From assembly GCA_026392355.1 (NCBI GenBank), contig JAPLCF010000029.1, forward strand, positions 1-64,000: 64,000 bases of DNA, read 5' to 3'. Under the pieces are notes generated by a model. The model had not been told where the DNA came from and searched no databases. It saw only the letters and a list, made by a program, of their open reading frames with translations. This document shows positions 9,932 to 19,823 of the stretch, piece after piece. The position numbers were made by a program, and so were the translations under genes. Within the stretch, counting starts at the first letter, position 1; each line of letters starts with the position of its first letter. The DNA comes from Actinomycetota bacterium. GTDB lineage: Bacteria; Actinomycetota; Thermoleophilia; Gaiellales; F1-60-MAGs149.

Positions 9932-12433
9932 CTACTTGACGACGATGTTGACGAGCTTGTCCGGAACCACGATCTCTTTGACGAGTTCGCGACCCTCCAG
10001 CTGCTCCGCAATCTTGGGCAGTGCCTTGACGGCGGCCAGCACCTCGTCCTTGGGCAGCCCGCAGCCGAGCTGCACGCGCTCGCGCAGCTTGCCGTTGATC
10101 TGCACGACGCACTCGAACGTATCGGCGATGAGCAGCGCCGGATCCGCGACCGGCCACGGCGTCTCCCACAGCCGCGACCCACCAAGCGCCTCCCACAGCT
10201 CTTCGGCGATGTGCGGCGCAAACGGCTGCACGAGACAGACGAGCGTGCCGGCGGCATGGCGCAGCGCCTGCCCGCCGATCGGGTCGCCCAGCAGGGCGTC
10301 GCGCTGCTTCTCGATGCCGTTGAGCAGCTCCATCGCCGCGGCAATCGCGGTGTTGAACTGCAGGCGGCGATCAATGTCTTCGGTGACGCGCTGGATCGAG
10401 TGATGCGTGAGGCGCAGGAGATCGAGCGCACTCCCCTCTGCCCCGCTCGGCGCGACGGGCAGGGGGTCGCCCGACGTCTCGGCGGCGATGCGGTCGACGG
10501 CCTTCCAGAGTCGGTCGAGGAAACGCGAGGGGCCGAGCACGCCGCTGTCGGACCACTCCTTGTCCTGCTCGGGCGGCCCCATGAACAGCACGTACATGCG
10601 GAGGGCATCGGCGCCGTAGCGGTTGACGATCTCGTCCGGGGCGACGACGTTGCCCTTGGACTTGGACATCTTCGCGCCGTCCTTGTAGATCATCCCCTGC
10701 GTGAAGAGGTTCGCGAACGGCTCCTCGAAACCGAGGTACCCCGCATCGAACAGCACCTTCGTGAAGAAGCGGCTGTAGAGCAAATGCAGGATCGCGTGCT
10801 CAACACCGCCGATGTACTGACCGACGGGCAGCCACCAGTCGACATCGCCCTTGGCGAAGGCCTCCATATCGTCGTGCGCGTTGACGTACCGCAGGTAGTA
10901 CCAGGAGGAATCGACGAACGTGTCCATCGTGTCGGTCTCGCGCTGGGCGGCGGCGCCGCACGACGGGCACGGCACGGCACGCCACTCCTCGGCGGCGGCC
11001 AGGGGCGAGCGGCCCTTGGGTGCGTAGTCCTCGATCTCCGGCAGGCGCACCGGCAAATCCGCGTCGGGCACGGGCACGAGGCCGCACGAGGGGCAGTCGA
11101 TGATCGGGATCGGCGCACCCCAGTAGCGCTGGCGCGAAACGAGCCAGTCACGCAGGCGATAGGCAGTCTTCTGCTCGCCCCGTCCGTCCTCGGCGAGCCA
11201 GGCGGGCACCGCATTCTTGGCGTCGGCGACCGTCATGCCATCGAACTGGCCCGAGTTGACGAGCACGGCGTCATCACCGGTCCCCGTGAAGGCCTGCGCC
11301 TGCACATCCACGTCGGCGCCATCGGTGGCGGCGACGACCTGGCGAATCGGCAGACCGAACGCCAACGCGAAGGTGTGGTCGCGCTCGTCGTGCGCGGGCA
11401 CGGCCATGATCGCGCCGGTGCCGTACTCCACGAGGACGTAGTCGGAGACCCAGATCGGGATCTCCTCGTTCGTGACGGGGTTGAGCACACGGCGGCCGGT
11501 GTCGACGCCCGTCTTGGGGCGATCGTCGCGCATGCGATCAGCGACCGACTCAGCACCGCGACGGCGCACGTAGTCCGTCACCTCGGCTTCGGCAGCGGTG
11601 CCACGCACGAGGTCGTTGATCATCGGGTGTTCGGGCGCCAACACGAAGAACGTCGCGCCGAACAGCGTGTCGGGACGCGTCGTGAAGACCGGGATCGCCT
11701 CGTCGCCGCCAACGACAGAGAACTGCACCTCGGCACCATGCGAGCGGCCGATCCAGTTGCGCTGCATCGTGAGGACGCGCTCGGGCCACTGCTCGAGCTT
11801 CTCCATGTCGTCGAGCAGACGATCGGCGTAGTCGGTGATACGGAAGAACCACTGCTCGAGATCGCGGGCCTCAACCTCGGTGCCGCAACGCTCGCAGTGA
11901 CCATCAACGACCTGCTCGTTCGCCAGCACGGTCTGGTCCTGCGGACACCACTTGACAGCAGCGCCGCGCTTGTAGGCCAGCCCGCGCTCGAACATGCGCA
12001 GGAAGATCCACTGCGTCCACTTGTAGTACTCGGGATCCGACGTCGAGAGCTCGCGGCTCCAGTCGATCGACCAGCCCATGCGAAGCATCTGCTCGCGGAT
12101 GCGCGCGATGTTGCGGGCGGTCACCTCGGCGGGCTTACCACCGGTTTTGATCGCAGCGTTCTCGGCGGGTAGGCCGAACGAGTCGTAGCCCATCGGATGC
12201 AGGACCTTATGGCCTGTGCGCCGACGAAAGTGCGAGACGACATCGCCCATCGTGTAGTTGGTGACGTGCCCCATGTGCAGATCACCGGACGGATACGGCA
12301 GCATTTCCAGCACGTAGGCGCGCGGCGAATCATCCGCCGCCGGATCAGCCGGGTTCGGCGTCTCGAACGCCTTCTCGTCGGCCCACACCTTCTGCCAGCG
12401 GGCCTCGACGGCCTGGGGGTCATAGCGCTCCAC
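9932..12433 (-). CDS. leuS: Leucyl-tRNA synthetase
   Basis: Charges tRNA-Leu in the cytosol. A GTG start at 12431-12433 gives VERYDPQAVEARWQKVW, the standard LeuS opening, and 833 residues, which is normal. A longer frame upstream adds residues without family support. Visible parts are the HIGH-type motif YPSGDLHMGH, the zinc-ribbon-like CPQDQTVLANEQVVDGHCERC, the CP1 editing domain with TTRPDTLFGATF and GTGAIMAVPAHDERD, a second cysteine cluster (CPSCG twice), the KMSKSKGN catalytic loop and the C-terminal anticodon domain ending in VPDKLVNIVVK. It is a separate transcript from comEA. Confidence 0.97.
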   Translation of the reverse strand: MERYDPQAVEARWQKVWADEKAFETPNPADPAADDSPRAYVLEMLPYPSGDLHMGHVTNYTMGDVVSHFRRRTGHKVLHPMGYDSFGLPAENAAIKTGGKPAEVTARNIARIREQMLRMGWSIDWSRELSTSDPEYYKWTQWIFLRMFERGLAYKRGAAVKWCPQDQTVLANEQVVDGHCERCGTEVEARDLEQWFFRITDYADRLLDDMEKLEQWPERVLTMQRNWIGRSHGAEVQFSVVGGDEAIPVFTTRPDTLFGATFFVLAPEHPMINDLVRGTAAEAEVTDYVRRRGAESVADRMRDDRPKTGVDTGRRVLNPVTNEEIPIWVSDYVLVEYGTGAIMAVPAHDERDHTFALAFGLPIRQVVAATDGADVDVQAQAFTGTGDDAVLVNSGQFDGMTVADAKNAVPAWLAEDGRGEQKTAYRLRDWLVSRQRYWGAPIPIIDCPSCGLVPVPDADLPVRLPEIEDYAPKGRSPLAAAEEWRAVPCPSCGAAAQRETDTMDTFVDSSWYYLRYVNAHDDMEAFAKGDVDWWLPVGQYIGGVEHAILHLLYSRFFTKVLFDAGYLGFEEPFANLFTQGMIYKDGAKMSKSKGNVVAPDEIVNRYGADALRMYVLFMGPPEQDKEWSDSGVLGPSRFLDRLWKAVDRIAAETSGDPLPVAPSGAEGSALDLLRLTHHSIQRVTEDIDRRLQFNTAIAAAMELLNGIEKQRDALLGDPIGGQALRHAAGTLVCLVQPFAPHIAEELWEALGGSRLWETPWPVADPALLIADTFECVVQINGKLRERVQLGCGLPKDEVLAAVKALPKIAEQLEGRELVKEIVVPDKLVNIVVK

Positions 12434-12573
12434 GCAGGCAGGATACGAGTTCGGTCCGCGGGGCCGACGCACCATGACAAGGCGAACGTCTGGCGATGCC
12501 CGGACCGGGAGCGGCACGATGCGTGCCGGACGTGCCGTGCACAGCCGCGCCGGACAGCCGGATGGCGTTGCTT

Positions 12574-12725: not shown

Positions 12726-13436
12726 ATGGAACTCACCTCCACGCAGGAACTCATCCTCTGGCTAGGTACAGCAGGCATGGCAATTGGCGCTGTGATCATC
12801 GCCGCAATCGGCTTTAGCCTGCCGAACAACGAGCGGCATCACGTCACGGCGAGCTTCTTCGTCTGCGCGATTGCCGCATGTGCCTACCTCGCGATGGCAA
12901 CCGGCACCGGCGTCGTCGAAATTGCCGGGGAGCAGATCTTCTACGCCCGCTACATCGACTGGGTCGTGACCACGCCGCTGCTCCTGCTGGGCCTGCTCAC
13001 GGTCGGACTCGCTCCGTTGGCGGGTGGCGGCGACGCTGCGCGCGCGCGCAACGGCCTCATCGGCTGGGTTATTGGCGCCGACGTCCTGATGATCGCCACT
13101 GGCCTGATCGCCTCGCTCCGTGGCGACAACAGCGACAAGTGGATCTGGTACGCCATCAGCTGCGTGTTCTTCCTGCTCGTCCTGTGGGCGCTGTACAGCC
13201 CCGTCAAGGCCCATCTCGATGCCGCATCGAAGCCGCTGTTCACCAAGCTGCTCGGCGTCCTGACGATCCTGTGGCTCATCTACCCGGTCCTCTGGGTGCT
13301 CGGCACCGAGGGCACGGGCGCGCTCAGCCTGACCGGTGAGATCCTGGTCTTCGCCGTCATCGACGTGCTTGCGAAGGTCGGCTTCGGCATCATCCTCGTG
13401 ACGGGCGTCAAGAGCTCGCACAAGGCTGCGGCCTAG
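12726..13436 (+). CDS. Microbial (type I) rhodopsin, putative light-driven proton pump with DTG motif
   Basis: A 236-residue, seven-helix retinal protein. The ATG at 12726 follows AAGGAG (12711-12716). Helix C reads YARYIDWVVTTPLLLLG: the Schiff-base counterion Asp78, Thr82 and Gly89 fall at bacteriorhodopsin positions D85, T89 and D96. The motif is therefore DTG, with no carboxylic proton donor. Helix G reads VIDVLAKVGFG, with Asp213 and the retinal lysine Lys217. Leu86 at the colour-tuning site predicts green absorption. Glu195 (GTEGTG) and Glu205 (GEILVFAVID) match the two bacteriorhodopsin proton-release glutamates. The proteorhodopsin-type histidine in helix B is absent. Tyr142 occupies the site that is Gly in carotenoid-binding rhodopsins, so an antenna is unlikely. 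No retinal or carotenoid genes are nearby. The gene is monocistronic, ending at a strong hairpin. Confidence 0.96.
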   Translation: MELTSTQELILWLGTAGMAIGAVIIAAIGFSLPNNERHHVTASFFVCAIAACAYLAMATGTGVVEIAGEQIFYARYIDWVVTTPLLLLGLLTVGLAPLAGGGDAARARNGLIGWVIGADVLMIATGLIASLRGDNSDKWIWYAISCVFFLLVLWALYSPVKAHLDAASKPLFTKLLGVLTILWLIYPVLWVLGTEGTGALSLTGEILVFAVIDVLAKVGFGIILVTGVKSSHKAAA

Positions 13437-16147: not shown

Positions 16148-16857
16148 CCGTGACCCTGCTGACGATTCGCGCACTGCTGTTCCGGCGGCGGTCGCTGGCG
16201 CTGCTCTTGCCCGTGCTGAGTGTGCCCGTCTTTGTCGCCATCGCCATCGTGCGCGGTGATGTCTCCCCGGACAGCCAGGCGATCATCGCGGGGCGCCTGC
16301 TGATCACCACGGTCGCTCCGCTCGTCGCGCTCGTGCTCGCCGTGACGGCAATCGGCGACGAACGGGAGTCCGGAACGATTGTCTACCTCGCGACAGCGCG
16401 AATCTCGCGCCTGCAGATCGTGCTGGAAAAGGCGCTTGCGGGCGTCGTGTGCAGCATCGTGCTCTTGCTGCCCGCGCTGATCGCGATCGGGATCCTCGGC
16501 TCACACCTCGGCATCGGCTCGAGCAACATTATGCGCGGCATTGCCGGCACCGTGCTCGTCGCCGCTGTCTACACCTGCGTGTTCATCACCGTCGGCCTGC
16601 TCCTCAAGCGAGCGCTCGTAGCCGGCATCGTCTACATCCTGATCTGGGAGGGCGCCATTGCCACCGTCGCCCCCTCGGCGGAGCGCGTGAGCATGACGGC
16701 ATGGGCGCGAGCCATCAGCGACGGTGGGCTCTACGGCCTCCAGCGAGACCTTATGCCGACGCAGTCGGCGATGTCTGCCGTTGTCGCCTTGCTGATCGTG
16801 TCGGCGTTTGCGGTGGCGCTCGGCGCGTGGCGACTAAACCGCATGGATCTGCCCTAG
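16144..16857 (+). CDS. ABC-2 type exporter, second membrane subunit
   Basis: A 237-residue protein with six predicted helices, starting at the ATG at 16144 in an ATGA overlap. After the first helix (LALLLPVLSVPVFVAIAIV) and the second (VAPLVALVLAVTAIG) comes the coupling loop DERESGTIVYLATARISRLQIVLEKALAG. The last helix (AVVALLIVSAFAVALGAW) ends in RLNRMDLP. This is the ABC-2 plan ('DERE-GTI-YL...I-R---V--K'). It completes the second exporter module with the split ATPase. Substrate unknown. Confidence 0.82.
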   Translation: MTVTLLTIRALLFRRRSLALLLPVLSVPVFVAIAIVRGDVSPDSQAIIAGRLLITTVAPLVALVLAVTAIGDERESGTIVYLATARISRLQIVLEKALAGVVCSIVLLLPALIAIGILGSHLGIGSSNIMRGIAGTVLVAAVYTCVFITVGLLLKRALVAGIVYILIWEGAIATVAPSAERVSMTAWARAISDGGLYGLQRDLMPTQSAMSAVVALLIVSAFAVALGAWRLNRMDLP

Positions 16858-16871
16858 CTGGGAACGCGCGC

Positions 16872-18302
16872 ATGCGGCTCCCATACGATCAGACCGTGAC
16901 GCAGCTCCCCCATCGCGCTCGCGACTCGCATACTGATGCGTTGCGCGTCCGCTACCTCGGGCCGGCCATCGTCCTCCTGCTCGTCGCCGGCTACGCGCTC
17001 TTGTGGCTACTCGCTCGACCCGCCGATCCCGTCGTGGTGATGCCCGCGCCTGATGGGGATCACGAGGGCGGTGGCACCGCCAGCTACATCGGACAGTTCC
17101 TCGGCGCCGAGTCCATCCTCCTGCTGTCGATCTCGCTCGTGCTGATCAGCACCCTGCAATGGGTCGACGCGTGGTTCGACGGAATCGATCGCGCGGCCAT
17201 CTGGCATCGACGTACGGCGATTGCTGGCTGTCTGCTGTTGATTCCGCACATGCTGCTGTCGCACGGCGAGGTTGAGTCGGCGCTCAGCGGCCCGCTCGCC
17301 ACGATCGGCGTGATCGGCCTGTTCGGTCTGGCCGTCTGGGCACTGCTGCCGCGCTGGCGTTTCTTCGTGCCGTCGCGCCTTCGCGCTCCGATCGTGGCAG
17401 TGCTTGCGACCGCACCCGTGCGGTTCGTCGACCGGTACGTCGGCGGCTACGACCTCTGGCGCTCCCTCCATCGGCTCGTAGGCATCTTCGTTGCCGCGGG
17501 CTTCCTGCACGGCCTGCTGGTCGGCACGATGTTCGGCGGTTCCCCGCTCCTGCGCTGGACGTACGTCGCCATCGGCGGCATTGGCATCGCGTTCTACGTC
17601 TATCGCGAGCTCCTCGCGCGGCGACTGAACGGCCTCAAGGACTACCAGGTGGAGGCAGTCCGGCCTCTGGCAGACGGGTTGACGGAGGTGGAACTGCGCC
17701 CGCTCGGCCCTCCCCTCGTCTTCACGCCCGGCCAGTTTGCGTTGATCTACATCGAGACCAAGGAAGGCTGGCGCCGCCACCCCTTCTCGATTGCGAGCGG
17801 CGCAGCTGAACGCAATCTGCGGTTCACGATCAAGGCGCTGGGCGACTACACCGAGCGCGTGCCCGACCTGGTTGAGCGGGGCATGCCTGCCATCGTCGAC
17901 GGTCCGTACGGTCGCTTCGATCGGCGCCGAGGTACCCGCCGACAGATTTGGATTGGCGCGGGCGTCGGTGTGGCGCCCTTCATGAGTTGGGTGCGCTCAC
18001 TCGAACCCGATGTCGAGCGTGAGGTGGAGTTCTTCCACGTCTATCAGGGGCCGTCCCCCTTCGCCGACGAGATCGCCGCAGCGGCAGCGGAGCACCCCGA
18101 CTTCCATCCATACGTGATTGACTCGACGACGGGCGACCGCCTGACGCCCGAGCAGGTCCTCGCGGAGATCGATGTCCCCTGCGACGAGGTGACCGTCTTC
18201 ATGTGCGGACCGACGCCGATGGTCCAGCAGTTCGAGACGGCATTTCGCCGTGCCGGCGTGCGCCGACAGCGCATCCATCGCGAGCACTTCGACTGGCGCT
18301 GA
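16872..18302 (+). CDS. Ferric-reductase-like transmembrane flavocytochrome (NOX/FRE type)
   Basis: 476 residues from the ATG at 16872. Six helices include two histidine-bearing ones: RRTAIAGCLLLIPHMLLSH and SLHRLVGIFVAAGFLHGLL. These give the four expected haem ligands of the ferric-reductase/NADPH-oxidase family. The C-terminal half is a ferredoxin-NADP reductase module: FAD-binding RRHPFSIASG, DGPYGRFDRR, nucleotide-binding GAGVGVAPFMSW and the end motif MCGPTPMVQQF. It would move electrons from cytosolic NAD(P)H through haem to the outer face, for ferric iron or oxygen reduction. It precedes an EfeB-type peroxidase gene, which supports an iron role, although a NOX-like function cannot be excluded. 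Confidence 0.85.
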   Translation: MRLPYDQTVTQLPHRARDSHTDALRVRYLGPAIVLLLVAGYALLWLLARPADPVVVMPAPDGDHEGGGTASYIGQFLGAESILLLSISLVLISTLQWVDAWFDGIDRAAIWHRRTAIAGCLLLIPHMLLSHGEVESALSGPLATIGVIGLFGLAVWALLPRWRFFVPSRLRAPIVAVLATAPVRFVDRYVGGYDLWRSLHRLVGIFVAAGFLHGLLVGTMFGGSPLLRWTYVAIGGIGIAFYVYRELLARRLNGLKDYQVEAVRPLADGLTEVELRPLGPPLVFTPGQFALIYIETKEGWRRHPFSIASGAAERNLRFTIKALGDYTERVPDLVERGMPAIVDGPYGRFDRRRGTRRQIWIGAGVGVAPFMSWVRSLEPDVEREVEFFHVYQGPSPFADEIAAAAAEHPDFHPYVIDSTTGDRLTPEQVLAEIDVPCDEVTVFMCGPTPMVQQFETAFRRAGVRRQRIHREHFDWR

Positions 18303-18404: not shown

Positions 18405-19823
18405 ATGGACATCCCGCACATCACTCGCCGCAGCCTGATCGCGTCCGCCGTCACCGGCGGCGCAGCAGCCCTGCTCGCACAGCCCGCAGGCCTGATCGAG
18501 AAGGCCAACGCCGCCGCTAACCCGGCCTGCGACCCGCACAGCAGCGTCGACCCGTACGGCGTCCACCAAGCCGGCATCACCACGAGTGCACCCGAGCACC
18601 TGCAGCTCGCCGCCTTCGATCTTGCCCCCGGCACGACGCGCCCGCAACTCGTGGAGCTCCTCCAGACGTGGCAGGGTGCGATCGGCCTGCTGACCCGCGG
18701 CCTGCCGCTGCCCGACGCCGGCGAACCCGACAAGGCGCCTGCGGATACCGGCGAGGCGCTCAGCCAGCGCGCCGACCGGCTGACGATCACGATCGGCTTC
18801 GGCCCATCGCTGTTCGATACGCGCTTCGGCCTCGCCGACCAGCGGCCAACCGCACTCGTCGACCTCCCTGCCTTCACGGGCGATGCGATCGACCCGGCGC
18901 GTTCTCATGGTGATCTGTCGGTGCAGTGCTGCGCTGAGACACGGCTGGTCGCCGAGCATGCGCTGCGCACGCTTGCGCGAATGGCGACCGGACGCGCAAC
19001 GGTGCGCTGGACGCAGGCGGGCTTCAACGAGCCGCCGTCCAATCCGGCTGACGGAGCGGGCCGCAACCTGTTCGGCTTCAAGGACGGCACCGCCAACCTT
19101 GACGCCAACGATCCGGCGCGCATGGCACGCAACGTGTGGGTGGACCCTGCCGATGGTCCTGCCTGGCTGGCCGGCGGCACGTATCAGGTCTACCGCCGTG
19201 TGCTGATGATCGTCCGTACGTGGGACGAGAGCGTGCTGTCGGAGCAAGAGGATGTAATGGGCCGTCGCCGATTGAGCGGCGCACCGTTTGGTGGCACCCG
19301 CGAGTCGGATCCCGTCAACAACGCACTGATGCCACTGACGGCACACATCCGCGTGGCCAACCCGCGCACGGGAGCCGACAGTGAAAACGAGCGCATCCTG
19401 CGTCGCGGGTACTCGTTCCACGACGGCATCGCGGCCGACGGCACGTTTGACGCCGGCCTGGCCTTCGTGGCCTATCAGCGCGACGCGCGCCGCCAGTTCA
19501 TCACGATGCAGACCCGCCTGGCGGCCAACGATGCCCTCAACGAGTACATCGCCCACACCGCGTCGGCCATCTTCGTGATCCCGCCCGGGACGACAGCCAA
19601 CGGCTACGTCGGCGAGACGTTGCTCGGGGCAGCGCCACCACGCGTCACGGTTCCAAATCCCGCTGCGGACCTCACGCTCCCGGGAGCGCCCGGCGCTGTG
19701 GCGCCAACCCCGCCCGCTACGCCAACTCCTGGCGCCCCAGCGACACCGTCGCCGACGGCGCCAAAGCCGCCGAAGCGACGCGCGCCGGCTCGCCGCAAGC
19801 GCCCCCGCCGCCCCCGGGCCTGA
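18405..19823 (+). CDS. Tat-exported DyP-type haem peroxidase (EfeB-like)
   Basis: 472 residues from the ATG at 18405. The N-terminus has a twin-arginine signal (ITRRSLIASAVTGGAAALLA). The DyP hallmark GFKDGTANL (about residue 224) supplies the catalytic aspartate. PLTAHIRVANPR supplies the proximal haem histidine in the form seen in EfeB, and RILRRGYSFHDGI and GLAFVAYQRDARRQF complete the fold. After about residue 420 comes an unusual tail rich in Pro/Thr/Ala ending in a K/R-rich stretch. It probably reaches across or binds the cell wall. EfeB-type enzymes act in ferrous iron uptake with EfeU and EfeO, but neither gene is in the window. The upstream ferric-reductase-like gene is the likely functional neighbour. 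Confidence 0.9.
   Translation: MDIPHITRRSLIASAVTGGAAALLAQPAGLIEKANAAANPACDPHSSVDPYGVHQAGITTSAPEHLQLAAFDLAPGTTRPQLVELLQTWQGAIGLLTRGLPLPDAGEPDKAPADTGEALSQRADRLTITIGFGPSLFDTRFGLADQRPTALVDLPAFTGDAIDPARSHGDLSVQCCAETRLVAEHALRTLARMATGRATVRWTQAGFNEPPSNPADGAGRNLFGFKDGTANLDANDPARMARNVWVDPADGPAWLAGGTYQVYRRVLMIVRTWDESVLSEQEDVMGRRRLSGAPFGGTRESDPVNNALMPLTAHIRVANPRTGADSENERILRRGYSFHDGIAADGTFDAGLAFVAYQRDARRQFITMQTRLAANDALNEYIAHTASAIFVIPPGTTANGYVGETLLGAAPPRVTVPNPAADLTLPGAPGAVAPTPPATPTPGAPATPSPTAPKPPKRRAPARRKRPRRPRA

What the first reader, a model, noticed from the sequence alone, without database searches (positions are those of the whole stretch)
12726..13436. Bacteriorhodopsin-like proton pump with a DTG motif in an actinobacterium-like genome
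The triplet is D78-T82-G89, so the cytoplasmic proton donor carboxylate (D96 in bacteriorhodopsin, E in proteorhodopsin) is missing. Yet both extracellular release-group glutamates (E195, E205) are kept, and the helix-B histidine of proteorhodopsins is absent. A DTG motif on a bacteriorhodopsin-like frame is an unusual combination. It predicts slow Schiff-base reprotonation with fast release, or use of another donor. Leu86 predicts green absorption and Tyr142 argues against a carotenoid antenna.
Basis: partly seen in the sequence, partly recalled or inferred. Interest (0 to 1): 0.72.

Follow-up and report, generated by a model that had tools for sequence, protein, structure and literature searches.

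The report
Lake actinobacterium's histidine-type light-driven proton pump
A lake actinobacterium carries a retinal-based light-driven pump that has lost the usual acidic residue for reloading its proton and keeps a pair of histidines near the inner opening instead; it belongs to an apparently untested branch of a known family and gives a simple test of how such pumps reload.

Summary
Window 12726-13436 encodes a 236-aa type-1 rhodopsin with D78/T82/G89 (DTG), E195/E205 (BR E194/E204), D213 and K217. It is not a one-off: 11 of 13 genomes of the genus carry it, and it sits in a supported clade of Thermoleophilia rhodopsins (98/99; 100/99; not recovered whole with a proteorhodopsin outgroup). The genome encodes Blh beside a lycopene cyclase, plus CrtI-like and SQS_PSY genes, so it can plausibly make retinal. 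H39 is invariant in 45 of 45 DTG+EE loci, H38 in 43 of 43 resolved, while the third SpaR histidine (H37, BR T46) is Ser in 44 of 45. Best reading: an outward proton pump whose Schiff base is reprotonated through Ser43, water and the histidine pair, with BR-type release. DTG rhodopsins are known, and a Rubrobacter DTG rhodopsin absorbing at 541 nm is published (PMC7979833). New variant of a known kind; no function shown.

The parts
12726..13436 (+). rhodopsin gene, 236 aa, DTG motif
   Evidence: Pfam PF01036 181.9 bits; AlphaFold2 pLDDT 93.7, seven helices
12711..12716 (+). AAGGAG, probable ribosome-binding site of the rhodopsin gene
   Evidence: read from the sequence; inference
12837..12842 (+). 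codons of H38-H39, cytoplasmic end of helix B, candidate proton-donating pair (SpaR H32/H33 positions)
   Evidence: invariant in 43 of 43 resolved / 45 of 45 DTG+EE loci; register with SpaR
12852..12854 (+). codon of S43 (BR T46, SpaR H37 position)
12948..12950 (+). codon of R75 (BR R82)
12957..12959 (+). codon of D78 (BR D85, primary acceptor)
12969..12971 (+). codon of T82 (BR T89)
12981..12983 (+). codon of L86 (BR L93; green-tuning residue)
12990..12992 (+). codon of G89 (BR D96, lost donor)
13149..13151 (+). codon of Y142 (BR W138 position, where antenna-binding rhodopsins have Gly; recalled)
13308..13310 (+). codon of E195 (BR E194, release pair)
13338..13340 (+). codon of E205 (BR E204, release pair)
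13362..13364 (+). codon of D213 (BR D212)
13374..13376 (+). codon of K217 (retinal Schiff-base lysine, BR K216)

Best explanation
A light-driven outward proton pump. Retinal on K217 isomerises; the Schiff-base proton goes to D78; a proton is released through the R75/E195/E205 network as in bacteriorhodopsin. The Schiff base is then reprotonated from the cytoplasm without a helix-C carboxylate: the most likely route is water next to G89 and S43 to the imidazoles of H38/H39, one turn below S43 on helix B, which take up protons from the cytoplasm. Shown: the residues, their conservation, their register with SpaR, and co-presence in the genome of Blh, a lycopene cyclase and further carotenoid-type genes. 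Inferred from homologues: pumping, direction and release. Inferred, with moderate weight: that the histidines are the donor or proton-collecting group. Expected behaviour by analogy with SpaR: slow, pH-dependent M decay that lengthens above the histidine pKa, and block by zinc.
For: All residues needed for outward pumping are invariant in the clade (R75, D78, D213, K217, E195, E205 in 45 of 45 loci). H39 (45 of 45) and H38 (43 of 43 resolved) are, with R106 and R108, the only invariant D/E/H/K/R residues on the cytoplasmic side (side assigned from the helix map). Helix-B His tracks loss of the carboxylate: 70 of 76 non-carboxylate loci have His at 39 or 43, 1 of 68 carboxylate loci does. H38/H39 align exactly with SpaR H32/H33, which line the cytoplasmic cavity of SpaR, an outward proton pump with no carboxylate donor (PMC10154332, passages). 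Blh beside a lycopene cyclase plus CrtI-like and SQS_PSY genes in the same genome; a rhodopsin-cyclase-Blh gene row in two loci of the clade, L031 and L086 (possibly the same genome, as their alignment rows read alike). No transducer gene next to it; its neighbours are LeuRS and an ABC transporter.
Against: Nothing functional was measured. In SpaR the H32A/H33A double mutant pumped only slightly less and H37 was proposed as the donor (PMC10154332); here that site is Ser, so the pair may be only a proton collector and reprotonation may come straight from bulk water. The His/carboxylate association rests on 3 changes on the tree and 2 independent pairs, far from significant. The sequence set was collected by similarity to this clade. 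The nearest solved structure is a rhodopsin titled glycilhalorhodopsin (8xx8, TTG), whose name suggests an anion pump, though it has Thr for the acceptor Asp. The phytoene-synthase assignment is not specific: its best NCBIfam hit is HpnD, below cut-off, and the cyclase is below NCBIfam cut-offs though above Pfam's.
Confidence: 0.68

Rival explanations
1. Outward proton pump with no internal donor: the Schiff base is reprotonated directly from bulk water through an open cytoplasmic channel, and H38/H39 serve structure or proton collection only. Photocycle slow at all neutral and alkaline pH.
For: G89 and S43 leave room for water (inference); SpaR H32A/H33A still pumped and SpaR reprotonates from bulk at higher pH (PMC10154332).
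Against: Strict conservation of both histidines in the clade suggests more than structure.
Confidence: 0.2
2. A photosensor rather than a pump, like rhodopsins that lack a donor and have slow photocycles (Anabaena sensory rhodopsin is DTS, per PMC10154332).
For: No cytoplasmic carboxylate; sensory rhodopsin II structures align well with the model, though a shared fold shows no function.
Against: No transducer-like gene adjacent in the window; release pair and D213 invariant; two loci of the clade have a rhodopsin-cyclase-Blh gene row.
Confidence: 0.08
3. A light-driven Na+/Li+ pump like the claimed function of the Methylobacterium DTG rhodopsin MpR.
For: Shares the DTG motif (PMC10154332, citing Cho et al. 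2021; that paper was not seen).
Against: The carboxylate pattern E32/E33/D35 said to mark the MpR-like group is not present around H38-H39, and the tree keeps the MpR-like rows in another supported group.
Confidence: 0.04

Closest known systems
Mirror proteorhodopsins / DTG rhodopsins SpaR (8anq) and PspR (7w74)
   Same: D-T-(G/S) motif, no carboxylate donor, and in SpaR two adjacent histidines at the same helix-B positions; outward proton pumps in print (PMC10154332)
   Different: They carry His at the BR T46 site (H37), here Ser; in SpaR the second release residue is Ser rather than Glu; joining both groups in one clade is rejected or borderline (p-AU 0.011; 0.0496; groups chosen after seeing a tree)
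MpR-like DTG rhodopsins of Methylobacterium
   Same: DTG motif
   Different: Ala-Asp instead of His-His, His at the T46 site, release pair Asp with Ala or Gly
Rubrobacter aplysinae DTG rhodopsin (WP_084709429.1; 541 nm, PMC7979833)
   Different: Whether L046 is the same protein could not be checked; L046 sits with a DTT protein outside the Thermoleophilia clade
Rubrobacter xylanophilus rhodopsin RxR (6kfq) and bacteriorhodopsin
   Same: Acceptor, Arg, both release glutamates, fold
   Different: They keep the Asp donor and Thr partner and lack the histidine pair
Glycilhalorhodopsin of Salinarimonas soli (8xx8)
   Same: Gly at the donor site; best match by sequence and fold
   Different: Thr for the acceptor Asp, no histidine pair

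Membership tests
Type-1 (microbial) rhodopsin | Seven helices, Schiff-base Lys in helix G, Pfam PF01036 | tested here: met
Outward proton pump of the BR type | Asp acceptor, Arg82, Asp212, Lys216 | tested here: met
Outward proton pump of the BR type | Carboxylate donor on helix C (BR D96) | tested here: not met
   G89
Outward proton pump of the BR type | Light-driven outward proton transport | not testable with these tools
   needs expression with retinal
Mirror proteorhodopsin (SpaR/PspR clade) | DTG/DTS/DTT motif | tested here: met
Mirror proteorhodopsin (SpaR/PspR clade) | H32-H33 pair | tested here: met
   H38-H39 in register
Mirror proteorhodopsin (SpaR/PspR clade) | His at BR T46 position (H37) | tested here: not met
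   S43
Mirror proteorhodopsin (SpaR/PspR clade) | Placement inside the clade on a tree | tested here: not met
   separate 15-row clade 98/99, joint clade p-AU 0.011; borderline 0.0496
MpR-like DTG rhodopsins | E32/E33/D35 pattern | tested here: not met
Xenorhodopsin | Pro at BR D212 (recalled) | tested here: not met
   D213. One locus with Pro there, Metabacillus L127, stands apart, where it is flagged as a long branch
Carotenoid-antenna rhodopsins | Gly at the fenestration site (recalled) | tested here: not met
   Y142

The most novel reading that the evidence does not exclude
A separate subclass of actinobacterial proton pumps uses a histidine pair at the channel mouth alone, without a carboxylate and without the T46-site histidine, as its cytoplasmic proton donor, coupled to an intact bacteriorhodopsin-type release group.
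Probability: 0.4. Interest if true: 0.62.

Novelty: new variant of a known kind. Interest (0 to 1): 0.45.

Why it matters
DTG rhodopsins raised the question of how a pump reloads its Schiff base without a carboxylate. In SpaR three histidines are candidates and the T46-site one was favoured. This clade is a natural variant that lacks that one and keeps the other two, with the BR release group intact, so it separates the contributions of the two sites. It also adds light-driven energy capture to lake Thermoleophilia, a group for which I found no rhodopsin study in the open-access library (listings only).

Tried and rejected
Close viral relatives: none in viral contigs. Xenorhodopsin, antenna rhodopsin and MpR-like membership: rejected on residues (see Membership tests). 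Operon with retinal genes in this genome: rejected; Blh lies on another contig, and around the window gene LeuRS and an ABC transporter are neighbours in the genus but not, in the same arrangement, in other families; in some genus members an enolase-like and a phosphotransferase-like ORF, named from reading the translations only, lie between the rhodopsin and the ABC genes on the other strand. A statistical case for His compensating carboxylate loss: not reached, too few independent changes. A tree with a proteorhodopsin outgroup left L002, L023 and L026 outside the 12-row clade (98/88); holding all 15 rows together was not rejected (p-AU 0.266), and after removing long rows and the outgroup they form one clade. 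In some searches the DTD and non-carboxylate rows are two sides of one branch (100/95, 100/96), but the Rubrobacter-type pair goes with the DTD side (93/86), so whether the carboxylate was lost once is open. Joining this clade with all 12 H43-type DTG/S/A rows was not rejected (p-AU 0.217). A paper on 8xx8 was not found. Harris 2015 and Cho 2021 were not read; they are cited through PMC10154332. Rows dropped: 3 fragments (L011, L012, L074) of 147 before counting; 144 thinned to 85 at 88% identity, then to 62, 55 and 57 with two added.

Full report
Observation. The gene at 12726-13436 (+) encodes 236 aa and matches Pfam Bac_rhodopsin at 181.9 bits. D78, T82 and G89 stand at BR D85, T89 and D96; E195 and E205 at the release pair; D213 and K217 are kept. 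The AlphaFold2 model is confident (pLDDT 93.7, pTM 0.89) with seven helices. Its best PDB matches are 8xx8, titled glycilhalorhodopsin, then bacteriorhodopsins and RxR in Foldseek; in the second look Z values of about 30-32 are tied over many rhodopsins.

Distribution. In 101 relatives searched (own genome included), 12 genomes have a rhodopsin: 11 of 13 in the genus, including the window's own, and one of the 88 others. The order search gave the same 12 of 129. In the class 47 of 399 and in the phylum 46 of 396 match, some only weakly (42 and 41 over the family cut-off). The named scan kept 80 of 175 confirmed loci; the closest bear titles such as Actinobacteria bacterium, Thermoleophilia bacterium, Gaiellales bacterium and Solirubrobacterales, largely from lake samples (habitat read from sample names, my inference). 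Several titles reading 'Bifidobacterium breve' are probably mislabelled MAGs (inference).

Residues across relatives. Of 147 loci, 144 were complete enough to score. Of 76 without Asp/Glu at site 89, 70 have His at site 39 or 43; of 68 with it, one does. Exceptions without such His are three Ktedonobacter DTN proteins, one NDQ, one TTQ and a Metabacillus DTA protein. In the 45 loci with G89 and both release glutamates (L046 set aside), H39 is present in 45, H38 in 43 of 43 resolved, R106 and R108 in 45, C47 in 43. Some of these are the same genome under two handles; thinned at 88% identity the set has 19 such sequences, L046 included. Site 43 is Ser in 44 of 45 and Gly in one. The association of His with carboxylate loss is not statistically independent: 3 changes each, 2 independent pairs on supported branches.

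Comparison with SpaR. SpaR H32, H33 and H37 align with sites 38, 39 and 43. PMC10154332 (passages read) reports H37 at the T46 position as the proposed donor, a cavity lined by H32, H33 and E92, slight loss of pumping in H32A/H33A, pumping only at acid pH and inhibition by zinc. Here the first two histidines are kept, H37 is Ser43, and the E92 position is Pro97.

Phylogeny. With motif columns removed and long rows left out, the 15 Thermoleophilia rows form one clade (98/99; 100/99). The Sphingomonas/Pantoea, Methylobacterium-type and Acidobacteriota rows form another supported group of 12 (96/97). Joining the window's clade with the SpaR-type rows is rejected at p-AU 0.011 or borderline at 0.0496. 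With a proteorhodopsin outgroup the 15 rows are not recovered together, nor is their clade rejected.

Retinal. The genome encodes a Brp/Blh dioxygenase above its NCBIfam cut-off, next to a lycopene cyclase-like gene, on contig C16, and an SQS_PSY gene and a CrtI-family desaturase side by side on C22. The SQS_PSY protein scores best, below cut-off, to HpnD, so phytoene synthase is an inference. Blh was found in 7 of 61 genomes searched, all in the genus. Two loci of the clade, L031 and L086, have rhodopsin, cyclase and Blh in a row; the two may be one genome under two handles, since their alignment rows read alike.

Mechanism and novelty. The invariant acceptor, counter-ion and release residues argue for an outward proton pump; the invariant histidine pair is the best candidate for the cytoplasmic side. 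Whether the pair donates or merely collects protons cannot be told from sequence. DTG rhodopsins are known, and a Rubrobacter aplysinae DTG protein absorbs at 541 nm (PMC7979833, passages). I found no paper on Thermoleophilia rhodopsins in the searches made (listings only). The finding is a new variant of a known kind.

Noticed in passing
window 9932-12517 (-): Leucyl-tRNA synthetase-like gene (named from reading the translation) diverging from the rhodopsin gene; a match to it was also found at the genus loci with readable upstream flank.
   Followed up: partly
window 16584-18302 and 18405-19823 (+): FAD-binding reductase-like protein with an apparent membrane part next to a Dyp-type peroxidase of the deferrochelatase kind (TIGR01412 424 bits, just under the 428 cut-off).
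   Followed up: no
L064 6763-8031 and L066 1411-2682 (-): An enolase-like ORF and a neighbouring phosphotransferase-like ORF lie between rhodopsin and ABC genes in some genus members but not in the window (named from reading the translations).
   Followed up: no
L087 3845-4540: A rhodopsin with DTS and Tyr-His at sites 38-39 in a contig labelled Saccharibacteria, placed near the Thermoleophilia clade but on a long branch.
   Followed up: partly
L104, L106, L108: Ktedonobacter rhodopsins with DTN, Thr at the T46 site and no His at 39 or 43: carboxylate loss without the histidines.
   Followed up: no
L110: A halobacterial DTD rhodopsin with His at site 39, the one exception among carboxylate rows.
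   Followed up: no
window 12864-12866 (codon 47) and the clade alignment: Cys replaces the helix-B proline of bacteriorhodopsin (P50 by the helix-B register) in 43 of 45 clade loci.
   Followed up: no
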